Of a stretch of 64,000 bases of DNA, positions 26,477 to 45,634 are shown piece by piece. The translations under genes and the position numbers were made by a program. The notes beneath the pieces are model-generated. The model had not been told where the DNA came from. It worked only from the letters and a program-made list of their open reading frames with translations, and ran no database searches. Positions within the stretch are counted from its first letter, which is position 1, and the number at the start of each line of letters is the position of its first letter. Location of the stretch: NCBI GenBank assembly GCA_023667225.1, contig JAMPAN010000004.1:1-64000 (forward strand), in the 5' to 3' direction. This DNA comes from Oxalobacter formigenes. Lineage in GTDB: Bacteria > Pseudomonadota > Gammaproteobacteria > Burkholderiales > Burkholderiaceae_D.

Positions 26477-28837
26477 ATGTTGCCTTCTATTGAACAACGG
26501 ATTGCCGCTTTGCTGGCGGTGAATGTCAAGCAGGTTGAAGCGGCGGCAGCGCTCCTTGACGGGGGCGCGACGGTGCCGTTTATTGCCCGTTACCGCAAGG
26601 AGGTAACGGGCGGCCTGGATGATGCGATGCTCCGCACGCTGGAAGAACGCCTGTCTTATCTGCGGGAGCTGGAAGAGCGGCGGGCGGCGATATTGAAAAG
26701 TATTGCCGGACAGGGAAAGCTGACGCCGGCGTTAAAGGCGGCGGTGCAGATGGCAGAAGACAGGGTGACGCTGGAGGATTTGTATTTGCCTTACCGGCCG
26801 AAGCGCCGGACAAAAGCGCAGATAGCGGTGGAGGCGGGGCTTTTGCCGCTGGCCGAGGCGCTTTTGTCTGATCCGATGCTGGCACCGGAAACGGAGGCGG
26901 CCAAGTATGTGCGCACGGCGTTTTCAACGGAGAATAGCGATAATCCCGGTGTGCCTGACGCGGCGGCAGCGCTGGAGGGCGCGCGCCAGATTCTGATGGA
27001 GCGCTTTGCGGAGGAGGCTTCGCTGCTTGGGGATTTGCGCGCTTATTTGTATGCGCATGGCGTGCTCCAGTCGGGTGCGGCGGAAGGCAAGGAAGAGGAG
27101 GGTATCCGCTTTTCGGATTATTTTGATTATGAGGAGCCGTTGGCGGCGATCCCTTCGCATCGGGCACTGGCGCTTTTCAGGGGACGCCGCGAGGGGTTTT
27201 TGGCGGTTCGCCTGAGGCTGGATTCGGAGGCAGAGCGACCGAAGTGGGATGCGCCGTTTAATCCCTGCGAGAGCCGCATTGCGGCCTGTTTCGGCATTGC
27301 CAACAAGGGGCGTCCGGCTGACCGCTGGCTGACGGATACGGTGCGCTGGGCGTGGAGGGTGCGGATTTTTACGCATCTGGAGGGCGGGCTGATGAATGCG
27401 CTGCGCGAGAAGGCCGAAACGGAGGCGATGGAGATTTTTGCGCAGAATCTGAAGGCGCTGCTTTTGGCTGCGCCTGCCGGGCACCGTGTGACGATGGGGC
27501 TGGACCCTGGCTTGCGCACGGGCGTGAAGGTGGCGGTGGTGGATGAGACGGGCAAGGTGCTGGATACGGCAACGGTTTATCCGCACCCGCCGAAGAGTGA
27601 CTGGCAGGGGGCGCTGGGTACGCTAAAGAAGATGGCCGCACAGTATGGCGTGAGCCTGATTGCGGTGGGAAACGGCACGGCTTCGCGGGAGACGGATAAG
27701 CTGGCGCAGGCGCTTCTTGGCTGTTTTTCCGGCAGGCAGATGGCGAAGGTGATGGTTTCGGAGGCGGGGGCTTCGGTTTATTCTGCTTCGGCATACGCTT
27801 CGGAGGAGCTGCCGGAGCTGGATGTGACGCTGCGCGGGGCGGTTTCGATTGCGCGGCGTTTGCAGGACCCGCTGGCAGAGCTGGTGAAGATTGATCCCCG
27901 CTCTATCGGGGTGGGGCAGTATCAGCATGATGTGTCGCAGCCGGGGCTGGCGAGAACGCTGGATGCGGTGGTGGAGGATTGCGTGAATGCGGTGGGGGTG
28001 GATGTGAATACGGCTTCTGTGCCGCTTCTGGCGCGGGTTTCCGGCATCGGGCAGACGGTGGCGGGCAATATTGTGGCTTATCGCGATTTGCACGGCCGTT
28101 TTGCTTCCCGCGAGGCGTTGAAGGCGGTTCCGCGCCTGGGGGAGAAGACGTTTGAGCAGGCTGCCGGTTTTTTGCGCATTCCGGGCGGGGATAATCCGCT
28201 GGATGCTTCGGCGGTGCATCCGGAATCGTATCCGGTGGTGGAAAGGATTCTGGCGGATGTGAAGAAGGGGATTGGCGCGGTAATTGGGGATACGGCGCTT
28301 TTGAGTTCGCTTTTGCCGGAAAGGTATGCCGATGATCGTTTTGGTGTGCCGACGGTGACGGATATTCTGGCGGAGCTGGAAAAGCCGGGCCGCGACCCCC
28401 GTCCGGCTTTTGTGAGCGCTGCCTTCAAGGAAGGGGTGGAGACGATAGATGACCTTGAGCCGGATATGGTGCTGGAAGGGACGGTGACGAATGTGACGGC
28501 GTTTGGCGCGTTTGTGGATATTGGCGTGCATCAGGACGGGCTGGTGCATATTTCTGCCTTGTCTGACCGTTTTGTGAAGAACCCGCACCAGGTGGTGAGC
28601 GCCGGGCAGATTGTGAAGGTGAAGGTGATGGAGGTGGATAAAAAGCGCAGCCGGATTGCGCTTTCGATGCGGCTTTCCGACAGCGCTGCTGCCAGGGCAG
28701 GGGAAAGGGGCGCACGGGGCGGATCTGCGAAGGAAGGGGAAAATATGCGCAAAACGCATAAAAATATGCGAAATACGCATAAACCGGAGGCGGCAACGGC
28801 GATGGCGGATGCGTTTGCCCGCCTGAAGCGGCAGTGA
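26477..28837 (+). CDS. tex: Tex-family RNA-binding protein
   Basis: Conserved RNA-binding, transcription-associated protein. It shows the N-terminal helical region with [15 protein letters not shown], a YqgF-type domain ([17 protein letters not shown]), helix-hairpin-helix segments ([33 protein letters not shown]) and a C-terminal S1 domain ([27 protein letters not shown]). The start [13 protein letters not shown] gives 786 residues. The linker after S1 contains [13 protein letters not shown], which is encoded by two copies of the ATGCG-N5-CGCAT dyad. The coding sequence seems to have accepted these repeats in frame. Confidence 0.95.
28745..28759. repeat. ATGCG-N5-CGCAT dyad, copy 1 (inside tex)
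   Basis: ATGCGCAAAACGCAT, an exact five-base dyad with a five-base centre, in frame in the tex linker. It contributes the residues MRKTH. One further flanking base pair (T/A) is complementary. Confidence 0.75.
28766..28780. repeat. ATGCG-N5-CGCAT dyad, copy 2 (inside tex)
   Basis: ATGCGAAATACGCAT starts exactly 21 bases after the first copy, that is two helical turns, and encodes MRNTH in the same tex linker. Confidence 0.75.
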
Positions 28838-28877
28838 CAGGAACCGGCACGGGGAGTGGCTGGGGAGAATGAAAATA

Positions 28878-28892
28878 ATGCGTAAAACGCAT
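28878..28892. repeat. ATGCG-N5-CGCAT dyad, copy 3 (tex/permease junction)
   Basis: ATGCGTAAAACGCAT with symmetric flanks (AATA before, TATT after), so the dyad arms extend to ten bases. It lies between convergent tex and the AI-2E permease gene and could act as a two-way terminator. Confidence 0.75.
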
Positions 28893-28963
28893 TATTGAAT
28901 CTGGTACGGCGGTGGCGTGCGTTTGCCCAGGATAGGCAGCGCCCTGGGAGTGGCGGCGGGCGG

Positions 28964-40076: not shown

Positions 40077-40095
40077 TTGTTGCGGGTGTGTGATT

Positions 40096-40110
40096 ATGCG
40101 TGTTACGCAT
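40096..40110. repeat. ATGCG-N5-CGCAT dyad, copy 4 (after metE)
   Basis: ATGCGTGTTACGCAT with flanks GATT and AATC, so the dyad arms reach ten bases around three bases. A T-rich run follows, so as RNA it would look like a terminator for metE. Confidence 0.75.
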
Positions 40111-40123
40111 AATCTTTTTGTTT

Positions 40124-40598: not shown

Positions 40599-40630
40599 GA
40601 TTATTTGCGCTGCAATGGTGTAAATTTTTT

Positions 40631-40645
40631 ATGCGTGATACGCAT
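40631..40645. repeat. ATGCG-N5-CGCAT dyad, copy 6
   Basis: ATGCGTGATACGCAT flanked by T-runs on both sides, in the region between the 139-residue gene and the repressor gene. As plus-strand RNA it would be a short stem followed by six U. Confidence 0.75.
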
Positions 40646-40825
40646 TTTTTGGCGGGCGGCGCTATGCCTGTGTGCGGGTTCGGCGTGAAAGGCAGGAGGC
40701 CGGTTTTTCTTTAAGGGGAGGCGCGCCGCTGTCATGGCGCTGCCGGCGGGCGCCGTATCGGTATCCGGTGGGTGTGCCGGGGGTGAGGCGGTGCTGCCGG
40801 TGTGTTTTTCAGGGCGGGCAGGGGT

Positions 40826-41476
40826 TTATTCTTCTGTCCACTTGCCGATGACGACGCCGCAGATGGTGGCGTTTCCGTTGATTTCGATGAATTTCTCTGG
40901 CCATGAAGGGTTGAGGGCCATGAGGTATTTTTTTTCGCCTTCGATGACAAGTTGCTTGAAGGTGGCTTCTTTGCTGTCTTCAAGGCGGACGACGACGCGG
41001 GCGCCGTTGATGGCTTCTTTTTCGGGATCGACAAAGATGATGTCGCCGTCGGAGTAGGTGTGTTTGCCCATAGGGTTGTACATGCTCATGCCTTTAACGC
41101 GCAGGGCAAAGGTGCGGCCGGTATGTTTTTTGATGCAGGGGAGCCATTCATCGGCGACGCCGGGTTCGTAGATGTCGATGACTTCGGCCCATTTGCCGGC
41201 GGTGACCCATGAGATGACGGGAACTTGTCCCTGGATGTCTGGCGCGGGTTCGATGTTGTGCTGGTTTTGTTCGAGCCAGTTTGACGGTTCGTCCAGGAGT
41301 TGTTCAAGGGTAAGGCCGAAGGCGGCGGCGAGTGCCGGGGCAAAGCTGGAACGGGTGCTGTCGCGCATTTCCAGGGCGCTGATGGTGCCTTTGGGGACGC
41401 CTGATTTTTCTTCAAGCTGTTCCAGTGTCCAGCCGAGGTGAAGGCGGTATTTTCTGATTTGTTTTCCGAGTGCCAT
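40826..41476 (-). CDS. Phage-type repressor with S24 (LexA-like) peptidase domain
   Basis: A CI/LexA-type repressor of 216 residues. The N-terminal helix-turn-helix spans residues about 1-62 (IRKYRLHLGWTLEQLEEKSG, then ALAAAFGLTLEQLL). The C-terminal S24 domain holds the nucleophile Ser in LRVKGMSMYNP and the Lys in GARVVVRLEDSKEATFKQL. An AG-type cleavage site (SWVTAGKWAE) lies near residue 92. It should be cleaved in a RecA-dependent way during DNA damage. It is divergent from the replication gene, the usual immunity-region layout. Confidence 0.92.
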   Translation of the reverse strand: MALGKQIRKYRLHLGWTLEQLEEKSGVPKGTISALEMRDSTRSSFAPALAAAFGLTLEQLLDEPSNWLEQNQHNIEPAPDIQGQVPVISWVTAGKWAEVIDIYEPGVADEWLPCIKKHTGRTFALRVKGMSMYNPMGKHTYSDGDIIFVDPEKEAINGARVVVRLEDSKEATFKQLVIEGEKKYLMALNPSWPEKFIEINGNATICGVVIGKWTEE

Positions 41477-41550: not shown

Positions 41551-41666
41551 ACGGCATGGATGTACTGGTTTTTTGTGCAGTGATGGAGCGCTTTAAAAGG
41601 ATAAGCGGGGATGCCGGAAGGCCGGTTGGCCGGGGGAAAGCGGGGCGCTGGCCGGGCAGGCAAAAT

Positions 41667-41681
41667 ATGCGTTTTACGCAT
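41667..41681. repeat. ATGCG-N5-CGCAT dyad, copy 7
   Basis: ATGCGTTTTACGCAT with flanks AAAAT and ATTTT, giving eleven-base perfect arms around TTT. This is the longest dyad of the set. It lies 74 bases upstream of the phage replication gene start. Confidence 0.8.
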
Positions 41682-41754
41682 ATTTTGAGCAAGGGGTTCA
41701 GCCGGGCGGGGTGGTTGACGGCAGGGATGGCGGGGCAAGGAAAGGAATCTGGCG

Positions 41755-42567
41755 ATGAGTATTCAGGCGATGACATGGGCTTATGGGCAGCGGATGAAGT
41801 CTTCGGTGAAGTTTGTGTTGGTGACGCTGTGCAATTATGCCGATGCGGAATGCCGTTTGTGGCCTTCTGTTGCTGATTTGGTGGAAAAGACCTGTCTGGA
41901 CAGGAAGACGGTGATAGCGGCTGTCGGCGCGCTGGAGGCGGGCGGGTTTTTGGTGGATACGGGGGAAAGGAAGGGCAAGACGCGGCAGATCAAGGTTTAC
42001 CGGATTGTGCCGGACGGCGGGGAGGGCGAAGGGGGAAAAGCGGCCCTGAAGCGGGATGCTCCCGGAGGTGGAACGGTTCCGTTTTCTTCTCCAAAGGATG
42101 CCGCTTTTGCCGTGGAAGGGTTCCCGGTTTCCGGTGAAAGGAGGCCAAAAACGGGACAGGGAATCTTTAATGAATCATTAAATGAATTGTCAGGGAATTG
42201 TCAATATGCGTATGACGCATATTTTGGGGCCGGGAAGGCGGGGAAGGCGGAAAGGTTTGTGCCGCTGGGGTATTTGGCGTTGCAGGGGGTTGATGCCGGT
42301 GTTGCCCTGGATTGGCTGGCGATGAGGAAGGCCAGGAAGGCGCAGCCAACGAAAACGGCGATAGATGGCATAGCGGGTGAGGCGGCAAAGGCGGGCATGA
42401 GTCTTGAGGAGGCTCTGAAGATTTGCTGTGCCAATGGCTGGCAGGGTTTCAGGGCGGACTGGATTCGGAAGCGGGAAAGGGCCCCGGCGGGCAGGAGCCT
42501 TTATGAACAAAACATGGAAGCGGTTGCGCGGGCAAAGAAGCTGATTTTGGGAGGGCAGGATGCGTGA
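41755..42567 (+). CDS. Phage-type replication initiator with winged-helix domain (O-like)
   Basis: A 270-residue protein. The N-terminal winged helix (residues about 1-85) reads SSVKFVLVTLCNYADAECRLWPS, then KTCLDRKTVIAAVGALEAGGFLVDTGE, as in phage O-like or DnaT-like initiators. A linker of about 80 residues includes YAYDAY, encoded by dyad copy 8. The C-terminal region has the W-x-GF-x-A-x-W pattern (NGWQGFRADWI) common in phage replication proteins. Its stop overlaps the next start by eight bases, so the pair is coupled like lambda O and P. Confidence 0.8.
   Translation: MSIQAMTWAYGQRMKSSVKFVLVTLCNYADAECRLWPSVADLVEKTCLDRKTVIAAVGALEAGGFLVDTGERKGKTRQIKVYRIVPDGGEGEGGKAALKRDAPGGGTVPFSSPKDAAFAVEGFPVSGERRPKTGQGIFNESLNELSGNCQYAYDAYFGAGKAGKAERFVPLGYLALQGVDAGVALDWLAMRKARKAQPTKTAIDGIAGEAAKAGMSLEEALKICCANGWQGFRADWIRKRERAPAGRSLYEQNMEAVARAKKLILGGQDA
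42206..42220. repeat. ATGCG-N5-CGCAT dyad, copy 8 (inside the replication gene)
   Basis: ATGCGTATGACGCAT with complementary flanks AAT and ATT, so the arms reach nine bases. It lies in the linker of the replication protein and is translated as YAYDAY, in a different frame from the tex copies. Confidence 0.75.
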
Positions 42568-43354
42568 GGCGGAGATAGGGCGTTTCGGCCAGATGATGGC
42601 GGCGGCTTATGATTTGTATGGCAGGCAGTTTTCGGAGTATGCGTTGTCTCTCTGGTGGAATGCTTTGAAACCCTATGACCTGAAAGTTGTTTCAGAAGCG
42701 CTGTCGGGGTTTATTACCAATCCTGACAACGGGCAGTATCTGCCCAAACCGGCCGATGTTGTTCGCATGATCGGCGGCACCACTACTGACCGGGCTTTGC
42801 TTGCCTGGGAGAAGGTGGACAGGGCGGTGCGGCACCTGGGGGTTTACAAGGATGTTGTTTTTGACGACCCGCTTATTCACCGCGTATTGCAGGATATGGG
42901 CGGGTGGATAAGGCTGGGGGAAAAAAAGGAAAGCGAATGGCCCTTTGCGGCCAGGGAGTTTGAGACGCGTTACCGGGGGTATGCGTATCAGAATGCGGAG
43001 CCGCCTTATTTGCCGGTGATGACGGGGTTGGCCAATGCGGAGAACAGGCGGAACGGCTATCCCGTTGATATGCCTGCTCTCATCGGGGAAGAGGCAAAGG
43101 CCAGGCGGGTGATGGCGTTGGGGAAGGGGCAGGCGGCGGTGTTGCCGAGCCTTTTGTTTCGGGATGAAGCGAAGGAGGCGGCACCGGAGATTTTCAGGAC
43201 GCCGACAGGACGGTTGTCGGTAACGGGATCTTCTATTTCGCCTTCCCAGAGTTTCAGGTTGAGCGAGCCTGCCGCCCCTGCCTTGAGGGACTCGGCTGCC
43301 TTGAATACTTTTTTGCCTTTTTTGGGCAGGGAATCGCCGGAACGGACCAGATAA
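42560..43354 (+). CDS. Phage replication-partner protein (DUF6475-like), 3' end chimeric
   Basis: Residues about 1-207 resemble prophage proteins coded after O-like initiators (I recall DUF6475): IGRFGQMMAAAYDLYGRQF, a YLPKPADVVRMIGG block and WPFAAREFETRYRGYAYQNAE. From about base 43184 the frame runs antisense to the Hsp70 gene, and the last 57 residues (from IFRTPTGRLSV) have no family character. So the phage gene was cut at or near its end and the stop at 43354 is accidental. Whether the product works is unknown. It overlaps the upstream gene by eight bases. Confidence 0.65.
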   Translation: MREAEIGRFGQMMAAAYDLYGRQFSEYALSLWWNALKPYDLKVVSEALSGFITNPDNGQYLPKPADVVRMIGGTTTDRALLAWEKVDRAVRHLGVYKDVVFDDPLIHRVLQDMGGWIRLGEKKESEWPFAAREFETRYRGYAYQNAEPPYLPVMTGLANAENRRNGYPVDMPALIGEEAKARRVMALGKGQAAVLPSLLFRDEAKEAAPEIFRTPTGRLSVTGSSISPSQSFRLSEPAAPALRDSAALNTFLPFLGRESPERTR

Positions 43355-44868
43355 TCCAGCGTGGGGCGGCCGCCGAGTTTTTCCAGCACTTCGATGCCAA
43401 CGGAATGGGATGCCGGTATGGCGTCAACGGTGGCGGCTGTCCGGGTAATGGCGATTTTGTCCTGCTTTAGGGAAACAGGGGCGCCTGCGGCATCGAATAC
43501 AAATACCTTGAAAAGGTTGTCTCCGTTTTTTGTCAGGGCGACGTCAAGGGAGGCGTTTTGCCTGAGCGGCAGCCTGCCGGATGTCCAGCCGGTATCCATG
43601 CTGTCAATCTGAAATTCTGCGCCTTCTGCCGCTTCGCCGGCAAGCTGGAGCACAATTTTTGCTTTGGTATCCGGCGTGCGTGCCATGTAGTTGAAAGACA
43701 GCGCAAGGCTGCCGCCGGAAGTGATCCGGCCCCGGCTGTTTTTACGCGCCCGGTTTCGGGACTGCCAGTCGATGGATTCCGCAAAAAGGCTTGCCCCTTC
43801 TGCCACCGCTGTCATGGGGTTCACATCGGTATTGCCCGGAATGCCCAGCTCAAAGGCGACTTTGTCGCGCAGGGGTTTGTAGTTGGTCGGGCCGCCGATG
43901 AAGACGATACGTTCCAGGTCATGCGGGGACAGGCCGGCTTTCTCAAGGGTTTCCAGGGCGGATGCGATGGATTCGTCCACCCGTGCGGCGATGAGTTTGT
44001 TGTAGGTATCACGCTGCAAGGGAATATCAAGATAGATTTCATTGCCGCCAAGATCCCTTATCCGCGCTTCGGTCTCCGATAGGCTGATGACGGTGTCTTC
44101 CCTTGAGGAAAGTTCAATTTTTGCCCGTTCGGCAGCCCAGGCGGCCAGCCTGTTGATCTGCCTGAAGGCGGGGTTTACGGAAAAGTCTTCGGGAAGGTCA
44201 AAATTTTCCAGGAGCCAGGGATGGACAATGTTATCGACCAGTGTCCGGTCGAAATCCCGGCCGCCGCACATGGCAATGCCGCCGTGCGCCAGGAGGTTGA
44301 CCCGCTGGCCGATGCTTTCGGCAATGGCGATATCCAGGGTGCCGCCGCCCAGGTCGTAAATGAGGAACATGCCGTCGGTATTGCGGGCACGCATGACGCT
44401 CATGACGGCGGCAACCGGTTCCTGCATGAGTGCCACATTGCCGATGCCGGCCATATCGGCGGCCTGCATGGTGGCGTCTTTTTGCATCTGGTTGAATGCG
44501 GCAGGAACAGTGATGACGGTTCCGGTATCCGGATCATTCCGGATTTCTTCCGGCAGGTAGCCGAACAGGACTTTTAACACTTCGGCTGAGCATTCTTCTG
44601 GCGTTTTGGTCTGGTTGACGGCAGGAAGCGGAACCGGCGTGCTGGTTCCCATGAGCCGCTTGAACAGCATGGCTGCGTTGCCCGGACTGTGCGGCGCGGA
44701 ATCGTAGGCCCGCTTGCCGATGTATTTATTGCCCCGCCGGTCAATATAGATGGCGGAGGGGGTGACGTCATTTTGTTCCGGGCTTCTCCAGATGCGGATT
44801 TCGGCGCCGTCGTAGGAACAGATGGCGCTGTTTGTTGTGCCCAGATCAATGCCAATGAAATTTTTCAT
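43057..44868 (-). CDS. Hsp70-family chaperone, 3' end replaced
   Basis: An ATPase domain of the DnaK/HscC class is intact: IGIDLGTTNSAICS near residue 5, TVPAAFNQMQKDAT, IYDLGGGTLDIAI and IVFIGGPTNYKPLRD. A beta-rich substrate-binding region follows (residues about 385-555). After PVGVLKISG (about residue 561, base 43184) the sequence becomes the reverse complement of the phage gene and ends at 43057 with about 42 unrelated residues. The helical lid is missing. It is not canonical DnaK. Its start overlaps the stop of the GrpE-like gene by four bases. Confidence 0.85.
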   Translation of the reverse strand: MKNFIGIDLGTTNSAICSYDGAEIRIWRSPEQNDVTPSAIYIDRRGNKYIGKRAYDSAPHSPGNAAMLFKRLMGTSTPVPLPAVNQTKTPEECSAEVLKVLFGYLPEEIRNDPDTGTVITVPAAFNQMQKDATMQAADMAGIGNVALMQEPVAAVMSVMRARNTDGMFLIYDLGGGTLDIAIAESIGQRVNLLAHGGIAMCGGRDFDRTLVDNIVHPWLLENFDLPEDFSVNPAFRQINRLAAWAAERAKIELSSREDTVISLSETEARIRDLGGNEIYLDIPLQRDTYNKLIAARVDESIASALETLEKAGLSPHDLERIVFIGGPTNYKPLRDKVAFELGIPGNTDVNPMTAVAEGASLFAESIDWQSRNRARKNSRGRITSGGSLALSFNYMARTPDTKAKIVLQLAGEAAEGAEFQIDSMDTGWTSGRLPLRQNASLDVALTKNGDNLFKVFVFDAAGAPVSLKQDKIAITRTAATVDAIPASHSVGIEVLEKLGGRPTLDYLVRSGDSLPKKGKKVFKAAESLKAGAAGSLNLKLWEGEIEDPVTDNRPVGVLKISGAASFASSRNKRLGNTAACPFPNAITRLAFASSPMRAGISTG

Positions 44869-45242
44869 TGTCCCGCCTTTTTCAATATGATGGTTCCTGT
44901 TTTGGCCAAACCGCTTTTTCCCATGATGACCGGTTCCAGCATCTGGTCGATTATCAATTTGTCCTGCGCGTCGAATTCTTCAATATTTAGCGGAGTGGCG
45001 GCCATGCCGGGATCGAAAGGCTGTCCCTCGATATTGACTATTCTCAAATCTGCCTGTTCAAGCGCTTCTTCCATTTTTTTGATGAACCAGCGGAACTGGC
45101 TTTTATACCGGTTTTGTTCCCCGGCATCCAGTTTTGAGAGCAGGCGGCCGAATACTCGTGCAAAGCGCCAGGATTCGACTGCCATGCTGATTAGCGCTTT
45201 TCTTTCTGCCCCGGAGGCGGCTGTTTGCGCGGAATCTGCCAT
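44865..45242 (-). CDS. GrpE-like small partner of the Hsp70-family protein
   Basis: A 125-residue protein. The N-terminal helical region (residues about 12-65) has ESWRFARVFGRLLSKLDAGE, then YKSQFRWFIKKMEEALEQ. The C-terminal beta region ends in MLEPVIMGKSGLAKTGTIILKKA, which recalls the GrpE wing (RVLRPAMV). I infer a nucleotide-exchange factor for the adjacent Hsp70, since the genes overlap by four bases. This is inference, not a confirmed match. The start at MADSAQTAAS is chosen over an upstream ATG 41 codons earlier. Confidence 0.6.
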   Translation of the reverse strand: MADSAQTAASGAERKALISMAVESWRFARVFGRLLSKLDAGEQNRYKSQFRWFIKKMEEALEQADLRIVNIEGQPFDPGMAATPLNIEEFDAQDKLIIDQMLEPVIMGKSGLAKTGTIILKKAGQ

Positions 45243-45558: not shown

Positions 45559-45634
45559 TGGTGCCAGCTGCAGGACTTGAACCCGCCACCCCCTGATTAC
45601 AAATCAGGTGCTCTACCTGATGAGCTAAGCTGGC
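45559..45634 (-). tRNA. tRNA-Thr (anticodon TGT)
   Basis: A 76-base cloverleaf read on the minus strand: acceptor stem GCCAGCT pairs with AGCTGGC, then A-CCA is encoded. The anticodon loop TTTGTAA gives TGT (reads ACA and related Thr codons). The T arm has GGCGGGTTCAAGTCC. It lies 25 bases past the sspB stop and upstream of the GrpE-like gene. Confidence 0.95.

What the first reader, a model, noticed from the sequence alone, without database searches (positions are those of the whole stretch)
43057..45242. Two-gene Hsp70 / GrpE-like system without a J-protein
A divergent Hsp70 overlaps a 125-residue gene whose C-terminal pattern EPVIMG...GTIIL resembles the GrpE wing. No DnaJ-like gene is present. 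Such a self-contained chaperone/exchange-factor pair, next to a prophage remnant and a tRNA, could be an accessory stress or defence module. The function is unknown to me.
Basis: inference. Interest (0 to 1): 0.55.

Follow-up and report, generated by a model that had tools for sequence, protein, structure and literature searches.

The report
Truncated remnant of Hsp70–GrpE chaperone operon
The two genes are a real Hsp70 chaperone and a miniature GrpE-like partner, but in this genome they are the broken front end of a longer mobile gene cluster, found intact in a sister genome, that also carries a AAA motor and an unusual adaptor protein.

Summary
The pair is real: a 125-aa gene (44865-45242, -) overlaps an Hsp70 gene by 4 bp. 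The GrpE guess holds for the fold: the AlphaFold model (pLDDT 92) has GrpE structures in Foldseek ranks 1-12 (best E 8.6e-4) and VIA-align Z 10.2 over 113 residues. 'Two-gene, self-contained, no J-protein' does not hold. The window Hsp70 is truncated: about 564 genuine codons, then about 39 antisense to a phage gene; the sister genome G007 has 831 aa. There, and in most relatives, the pair continues into a AAA ATPase and a ~550-aa protein (JL: J-like helix order without HPD, then PH-like domains). Of 80 loci found by the small gene, Hsp70 follows in 77 of 77 with room, AAA in 55 of 60, JL in 46 of 46. In 80 family Hsp70s compared, five ATPase residues are invariant, but the DnaK arginine that meets HPD is gone (Ala 78, Gly 1, Ser 1) and no LLLDV-type linker was found. 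Best reading: decayed remnant of a rare, mobile Hsp70/GrpE-like/AAA/JL machine with non-canonical coupling. Defence or stress role is unresolved: a PADLOC count of neighbours did not differ from a control.

The parts
44865..45242 (-). 125-aa GrpE-like protein gene (two helices and a beta wing)
   Evidence: AlphaFold; fold search; profile; 93% identical in G007
43176..44868 (-). genuine part of the Hsp70 gene, about 564 codons: nucleotide-binding domain and part of the following region
   Evidence: Pfam HSP70; ends where similarity to G007 ends; intact relatives about 830 aa
43057..43175 (-). tail of the Hsp70 ORF, about 39 codons plus stop, antisense to the phage DUF6475 gene; not Hsp70 sequence
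43175..43176 (.). junction between operon and phage sequence (accurate to a few bases)
   Evidence: end of blastn alignment with G007
42560..43354 (+). phage DUF6475 gene; its last ~59 codons run antisense through the Hsp70 remnant, so its own 3' end may be lost too
   Evidence: Pfam DUF6475 E 6.4e-35; homologue in G007 ends differently
41755..42567 (+). phage-type HTH_36 gene of the remnant
   Evidence: E 4.8e-08
40826..41476 (-). phage-type repressor (HTH_3 + Peptidase_S24)
45559..45634 (-). tRNA-Thr (TGT) upstream of the module; same neighbour in G007

Best explanation
The two genes are the surviving 5' end of a horizontally moving operon for a dedicated Hsp70 machine: a minimal GrpE-like exchange factor, an ATPase-competent but divergent Hsp70, a classical AAA ATPase and an adaptor (JL) with a short J-like helical N-terminus and C-terminal PH-like domains. 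A deletion probably joined the inside of the Hsp70 gene to the inside of a prophage and removed the rest of the operon. Inferred mechanism of intact copies: the GrpE-like protein resets the Hsp70 by nucleotide exchange; JL delivers or tethers substrate in place of a classical J-protein (HPD, the DnaK arginine that meets it and the LLLDV-type linker are all missing); the AAA ATPase then acts on the delivered substrate, as in Hsp70-AAA partnerships. Shown: truncation, GrpE-like fold, conserved gene order, conserved ATPase residues, joint absence of the canonical J-coupling features. Inferred: the deletion event, nucleotide exchange, JL as J substitute, joint action with AAA, biological role. The window copy is most likely not functional as a system.
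For: Truncation against an 831-aa intact gene in G007; missing 4.6 kb found in 1 of 13 genus genomes, G007, and not in the own genome. GrpE-like fold and profile score 30.5 against a null maximum of 22.4 in 60 permutations. Operon in 80 loci from many phyla. ATPase residues invariant in 80 of 80 Hsp70s compared, R167 equivalent lost in 80 of 80, no LLLDV-type linker in 80; no HPD in 62 of 62 JL. Plasmids and Tn7-like elements; 4 of 369 genomes of the class sample.
Against: Pfam GrpE cut-off not met (16.0 against 25.8 bits); hhalign probability only 46% over 59 columns; the PDB sequence search with the same profile found no GrpE. The J-like reading of JL is not supported by profile comparison (13.1, null maximum 15.5) and Pfam DnaJ matched 1 of 58 at E 0.11. 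AAA is absent downstream in 5 of 60 loci. dN/dS against G007 looks like that of neighbouring genes, so the fragment may still do something. No experiment supports the proposed division of labour.
Confidence: 0.6

Rival explanations
1. One reading: a self-contained two-gene Hsp70/GrpE-like module that works as it stands, perhaps with the cell's own DnaJ.
For: Both reading frames are open up to the junction; dN/dS 0.05-0.21 for the retained parts.
Against: About 267 C-terminal residues are gone relative to G007; JL is present in 46 of 46 and AAA in 55 of 60 loci with room; the arginine by which DnaK meets DnaJ is Ala here.
Confidence: 0.08
2. Intact copies are an anti-phage defence system: the chaperone machine senses or disarms phage proteins.
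For: Polaromonas copy lies near ZorA-type genes; flanking proteins include HamA, type I restriction, SoFic, ZorD, DrmMI and TniQ matches; published conflict systems with Hsp70 (passages of PMC7159879 and PMC11090510); DnaJ is needed for phage sensing by bNACHT25 (passages of PMC12169576).
Against: 54 PADLOC models matched in 120 flanking proteins against 50 in 101 control proteins (25 of each list shown); no PADLOC model fits the operon beyond a generic AAA match to IetA/TRIP13.
Confidence: 0.35
3. Intact copies are an accessory protein quality control (stress) cargo, like known mobile disaggregase islands.
For: Hsp70 plus exchange factor plus AAA is the layout of a disaggregation machine (general knowledge); carried on plasmids and Tn7-like elements, one beside mercury resistance genes.
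Against: The AAA gene is of the PAN/FtsH/CDC48 type, not recognised as ClpB; no stress regulation was tested.
Confidence: 0.35
4. The truncation is an assembly misjoin; the real gene is intact.
For: Draft genome in 37 contigs.
Against: The missing 4.6 kb has no match in the genome, whose estimated completeness is 99.98%; the phage segment matches once in it, so no repeat invites a misjoin.
Confidence: 0.07

Closest known systems
DnaK-GrpE-DnaJ machine (own copy on contig C37)
   Same: Hsp70 ATPase domain with the five catalytic residues checked; GrpE-like fold of the partner; lobe II loop kept in the window and the four family rows shown.
   Different: Small protein below the Pfam GrpE cut-off; Hsp70 far below the DnaK cut-off (193.7 against 648 bits); no R167 equivalent, no LLLDV-type linker; no J-domain with HPD in the operon proteins examined; extra AAA gene.
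GAP1-N2 GTPase conflict systems with HSP70, GrpE and a DnaJ-FNIII protein (Kaur et al. 2020, PMC7159879; passages read)
   Same: Predicted conflict operons that pair Hsp70 with GrpE and a J-containing protein.
   Different: The paper ties that theme to a GAP1-N2 GTPase, mainly in actinobacteria and firmicutes; the four downstream G007 operon proteins show HSP70 and AAA and no GTPase family.
CoCoNuT type III systems with CnuD Hsp70-like proteins (PMC11090510; passages read)
   Same: Hsp70-like NBD/SBD protein in a candidate defence operon.
   Different: Those Hsp70-like domains are described as having degenerate ATPase motifs and belonging to McrBC-type GTPase systems; here ATPase residues are invariant in 80 of 80 and no McrB-type gene was seen in the G007 operon. 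The paper's text has no occurrence of GrpE.
IetAS (AAA ATPase IetA)
   Same: The AAA gene matches IetA models (PADLOC E 7e-25; NCBIfam E 1.6e-23).
   Different: 83.5 bits against a cut-off of 510: a shared AAA domain, not membership; no protease gene was identified among the operon proteins scanned.

Membership tests
GrpE | score above Pfam PF01025 gathering cut-off | tested here: not met
   window protein 16.0 bits, cut-off 25.8; 23 of 62 relatives match at E <= 0.1, best 0.0031
GrpE | GrpE fold (long helices and beta wing) | tested here: met
   Foldseek ranks 1-12 GrpE/GrpEL1, two at E <= 0.001; VIA Z 10.2, 113 residues, 4.2 A to 1dkg_B; first non-GrpE row Z 7.9 over the helices; Thermus GrpE only 5.7
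GrpE | sequence-profile relation to GrpE | tested here: met
   hhalign 30.5 against at most 22.4 in 60 column permutations, probability 46%, helices and start of wing only
GrpE | dimer that binds lobe II and releases nucleotide | not testable with these tools
   needs complex prediction or biochemistry
Hsp70 superfamily | Hsp70 nucleotide-binding domain with catalytic residues | tested here: met
   Pfam HSP70 E 3.6e-50; D8, K70, E171, T199, D201 equivalents in 80 of 80 (numbering recalled)
DnaK (equivalog) | NCBIfam DnaK cut-off and LLLDV-type linker | tested here: not met
   193.7 against 648 bits; linker pattern in 0 of 80
J-domain protein (JL) | HPD motif | tested here: not met
   0 of 62 within the first 260 residues
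J-domain protein (JL) | profile match to J-domains | tested here: not met
   hhalign 13.1, null maximum 15.5 in 60 permutations; Pfam DnaJ 1 of 58 at E 0.11
J-domain protein (JL) | four-helix J fold | tested here: inconclusive
   helix order 12-15, 24-34, 40-51, 53-61 in the model; N-terminus barely tested in fold searches
GAP1-N2 or CoCoNuT conflict systems | GAP1-N2 or McrB-like GTPase gene in the operon | tested here: not met
   Pfam on the four downstream G007 operon proteins; other loci not checked one by one
PADLOC-DB 2.0.0 systems | model match of the operon proteins | tested here: not met
   eight proteins scanned at E <= 0.1: only the AAA gene gives strong matches (IetA, TRIP13); weak ones elsewhere are 0.004 or worse

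The most novel reading that the evidence does not exclude
A mobile Hsp70 machine that kept the GrpE half of the classical cycle but replaced the J half: HPD, the arginine that it meets and the interdomain linker are missing together, and a PH-domain adaptor with a degenerate J-like head plus a dedicated AAA ATPase took over, possibly as an immune sensor that inspects phage or misfolded proteins.
Probability: 0.3. Interest if true: 0.75.

Novelty: new variant of a known kind. Interest (0 to 1): 0.5.

Why it matters
If intact copies work as proposed, they show an Hsp70 cycle with a GrpE-type exchange factor but without HPD-driven stimulation, which makes it directly testable how an Hsp70 can be coupled to its substrate without a classical J-protein. 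It would also add a widespread but rare mobile chaperone operon to the candidate defence or stress cargo of bacteria. The window itself matters mainly as a warning: the apparent two-gene minimal system is a truncation.

Tried and rejected
Without result: viral contigs with the small protein, 6 pattern matches and no relative; phage records with the Hsp70 C-terminal region, no match; a second copy of the tRNA 3' end as attachment site, only the tRNA itself matched with up to 3 mismatches; PDB sequences with the small-protein profile, three matches at E 0.41 or worse, none GrpE, and with the JL N-terminus, three at E 7.6 or worse. Fold search of whole JL: no match at E <= 0.001; VIA-align rows cover residues 223-350 and 364-444, so the N-terminal part was barely tested and no J-domain chain was listed. 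In one search the letter-by-letter comparison at the junction found no exact anchor and printed nothing; only its DUF6475 comparison is used.

Rejected or not established: tRNA linkage as a family trait (7 of the 60 loci scanned, of 80 held, have any tRNA, the sister locus among them). Defence enrichment as a statistic: 54 models matched in 120 flanking proteins against 50 in 101 control proteins, with only the first 25 of each list shown. The control list is swollen by one protein that matches many PD-T4-6 models, and the test list holds more defence-specific names, but that is judgement. The test proteins are 120 of 377 flanking ORFs of 180 aa or more (up to two nearest on each side, 125 chosen under a size limit that ended at L090, five with open ends dropped). 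The control ORFs come from 20 stretches of other genomes, not the same ones.

Rows dropped: A4 holds 62 of 87 small proteins (below 93% identity 67 remain, five plasmid-record rows left out because the structure tool may not take them). A5 holds 52 of 62 JL (seven plasmid-record rows, L054 with an open end, and L055 and L087 by omission). A6 holds 58 of 62 (L009, L013, L105, L108 out). The 80 Hsp70s are those scoring over 800 bits to the family profile, plasmid rows included; L013 and short fragments are out, and some are cut by contig ends. The 11 canonical rows are 11 of 16 found, hold repeats of the same DnaK, and mix DnaK-like and HscA-like proteins. The small gene of Pseudomonas hygromyciniae (L013) was not found by the family profile and rests on position, size and a multiple alignment.

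Full report
Observation. The window holds an Hsp70 ORF (43057-44868, -) and a 125-aa ORF (44865-45242, -) that overlap by 4 bp. Pfam finds HSP70 in residues 5-363 (E 3.6e-50) and only a sub-threshold GrpE match in the small protein (16.0 bits against 25.8). The genome has its canonical dnaK, grpE and dnaJ together on contig C37, so this pair is extra.

The Hsp70 gene is broken. Among 12 other genomes of the genus only G007 has the small gene (93% identical) and the closely related Hsp70 (98%). Window and G007 are 94.3% identical from 45408 down to 43176 and then part. In G007 the gene runs on to 831 aa and is followed by a AAA ATPase (480 aa), a 550-aa protein (here JL) and a 241-aa protein. 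In the window about 564 genuine codons are followed by about 39 that are antisense to a phage DUF6475 gene, which may lose its own end there. The missing 4.6 kb is found in 1 of 13 genus genomes, G007, and not in the window's own. The simplest account, an inference, is a deletion that fused the operon to a neighbouring prophage and left repressor, HTH_36 and DUF6475 genes.

The pair elsewhere. A genome scan with the small protein gave 86 relatives, 80 kept as loci L031-L110, with record titles from Pseudomonadota, Desulfobacterota-type, Verrucomicrobia-type, Chlorobium, Nitrospira, cyanobacteria, planctomycetes and Poribacteria (grouping recalled). Hsp70 is next to the small gene in 77 of 77 loci with more than 300 bases beyond it; the 4-bp overlap is kept in 67 of 78; AAA lies downstream in 55 of 60 loci with more than 4.5 kb, JL in 46 of 46 with more than 9 kb. 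In the Sinorhizobium and Aminobacter plasmids a JL-like gene lies upstream instead. The loci were collected with the small gene, so the converse was tested with the Hsp70 C-terminal region: 4 of 369 genomes of the class matched, own included, and all four carry the small gene. The plasmid collection has 14 records with this Hsp70 region. I opened seven; each has a gene of the right size directly upstream, the most divergent by alignment only. The system is rare and mobile: Shewanella and Aeromonas copies lie next to Tn7-like transposition genes and the Polaromonas copy near zorA. The Aeromonas Hsp70 is itself split in two ORFs.

The small protein is GrpE-like. AlphaFold with 62 sequences gives pLDDT 92.3, with helices 2-36 and 40-63 and a beta wing. 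Foldseek against the PDB puts GrpE or GrpEL1 in ranks 1-12 (best E 8.6e-4, two at E <= 0.001, first unrelated E 0.81). VIA-align gives Z 10.2 with 113 residues at 4.2 A to GrpE of the DnaK complex 1dkg; the first unrelated row has Z 7.9 over the helices alone. Profile comparison with 31 GrpE sequences scores 30.5 against at most 22.4 in 60 column permutations, at 46% probability. It fails the Pfam cut-off, so 'GrpE-like' is the right word.

The Hsp70 and its coupling. In 80 family members (over 800 bits to the family profile) the equivalents of D8, K70, E171, T199 and D201 are invariant, so it should hydrolyse ATP. The arginine four residues before E171 (R167 of E. coli DnaK; numbering and its contact with HPD are recalled) is Ala in 78, Gly in 1 and Ser in 1, against Arg in 11 of 11 canonical rows, which include repeats. 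None of the 80 has LLLDV, or a pattern like it at residues 350-440. The lobe II loop is kept: 46 residues in the window and the four family rows shown, 42 in the own DnaK, 37 in one HscA-like row.

JL. Its N-terminus has the helix order of a J-domain in a confident model (pLDDT 93.1; helices 12-15, 24-34, 40-51, 53-61) and by eye its consensus recalls one. But HPD is absent in 62 of 62, profile comparison is within the null (13.1 against a maximum of 15.5), and Pfam DnaJ appears once in 58 at E 0.11. I treat JL as a candidate J substitute, not a J-protein. Residues 366-444 match FERM-F3/PH domains with Z near 10 over 79 residues. The AAA gene is a classical AAA ATPase nearest to PAN, FtsH, CDC48 and IetA models, far below their cut-offs.

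Function. The combination suggests ATP-driven handling of a protein substrate: JL binds or tethers, Hsp70 holds and releases under control of the GrpE-like factor, AAA acts on the substrate. Published Hsp70-containing conflict systems (PMC7159879 and PMC11090510, passages read) and the need for DnaJ in phage sensing by bNACHT25 (PMC12169576, passages read) make a defence role plausible. My neighbour count does not establish it: 54 PADLOC models in 120 flanking proteins against 50 in 101 control proteins. I hold defence and protein quality control equally likely.

State of the window copy. dN/dS against G007 is 0.20 (small gene), 0.05 (residues 1-380) and 0.21 (381-563); four neighbouring genes give 0.08-0.15. 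This reflects selection before or since the break and cannot show that the fragment works.

Novelty. Nine library searches (open-licence PMC papers only; listings read, three papers opened for passages) returned no paper that I recognised as describing this operon; the nearest are named above. I call it a new variant of a known kind, of which the window holds only a remnant.

Noticed in passing
window 40095-40111, 40630-40646, 41666-41682, 42205-42221; also 28744-28760, 28765-28781, 28877-28893: A palindrome TATGCGTNNNACGCATA occurs 7 times with up to 2 mismatches against a mean of 0.08 expected in shuffles. Four copies lie in and around the prophage-remnant genes, between and inside ORFs; it could be an operator or another recognition site.
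   Followed up: partly
L014 8074-8412 (G007, between tRNA-Thr and the small gene): G007 has about 1.2 kb here, with a 112-aa ORF that looks like a ribbon-helix-helix protein by eye; the window lacks this stretch.
   Followed up: no
L031: The public record behind G007's contig is titled Alistipes senegalensis, yet it is 94-96% identical to this window over long stretches and sits in the same genus group; the title looks like a mislabelled MAG.
   Followed up: no
L107 56-131 and 816-1205: A betaproteobacterial MAG also has tRNA-Thr (TGT) shortly before the small gene, as in the window and G007; possibly a shared landing site.
   Followed up: no
L009 11995-14492; L073 10333-12844; L032; L063: Other copies have a split or short Hsp70 ORF inside longer contigs, so decay of this gene may recur; sequencing errors were not excluded.
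   Followed up: no
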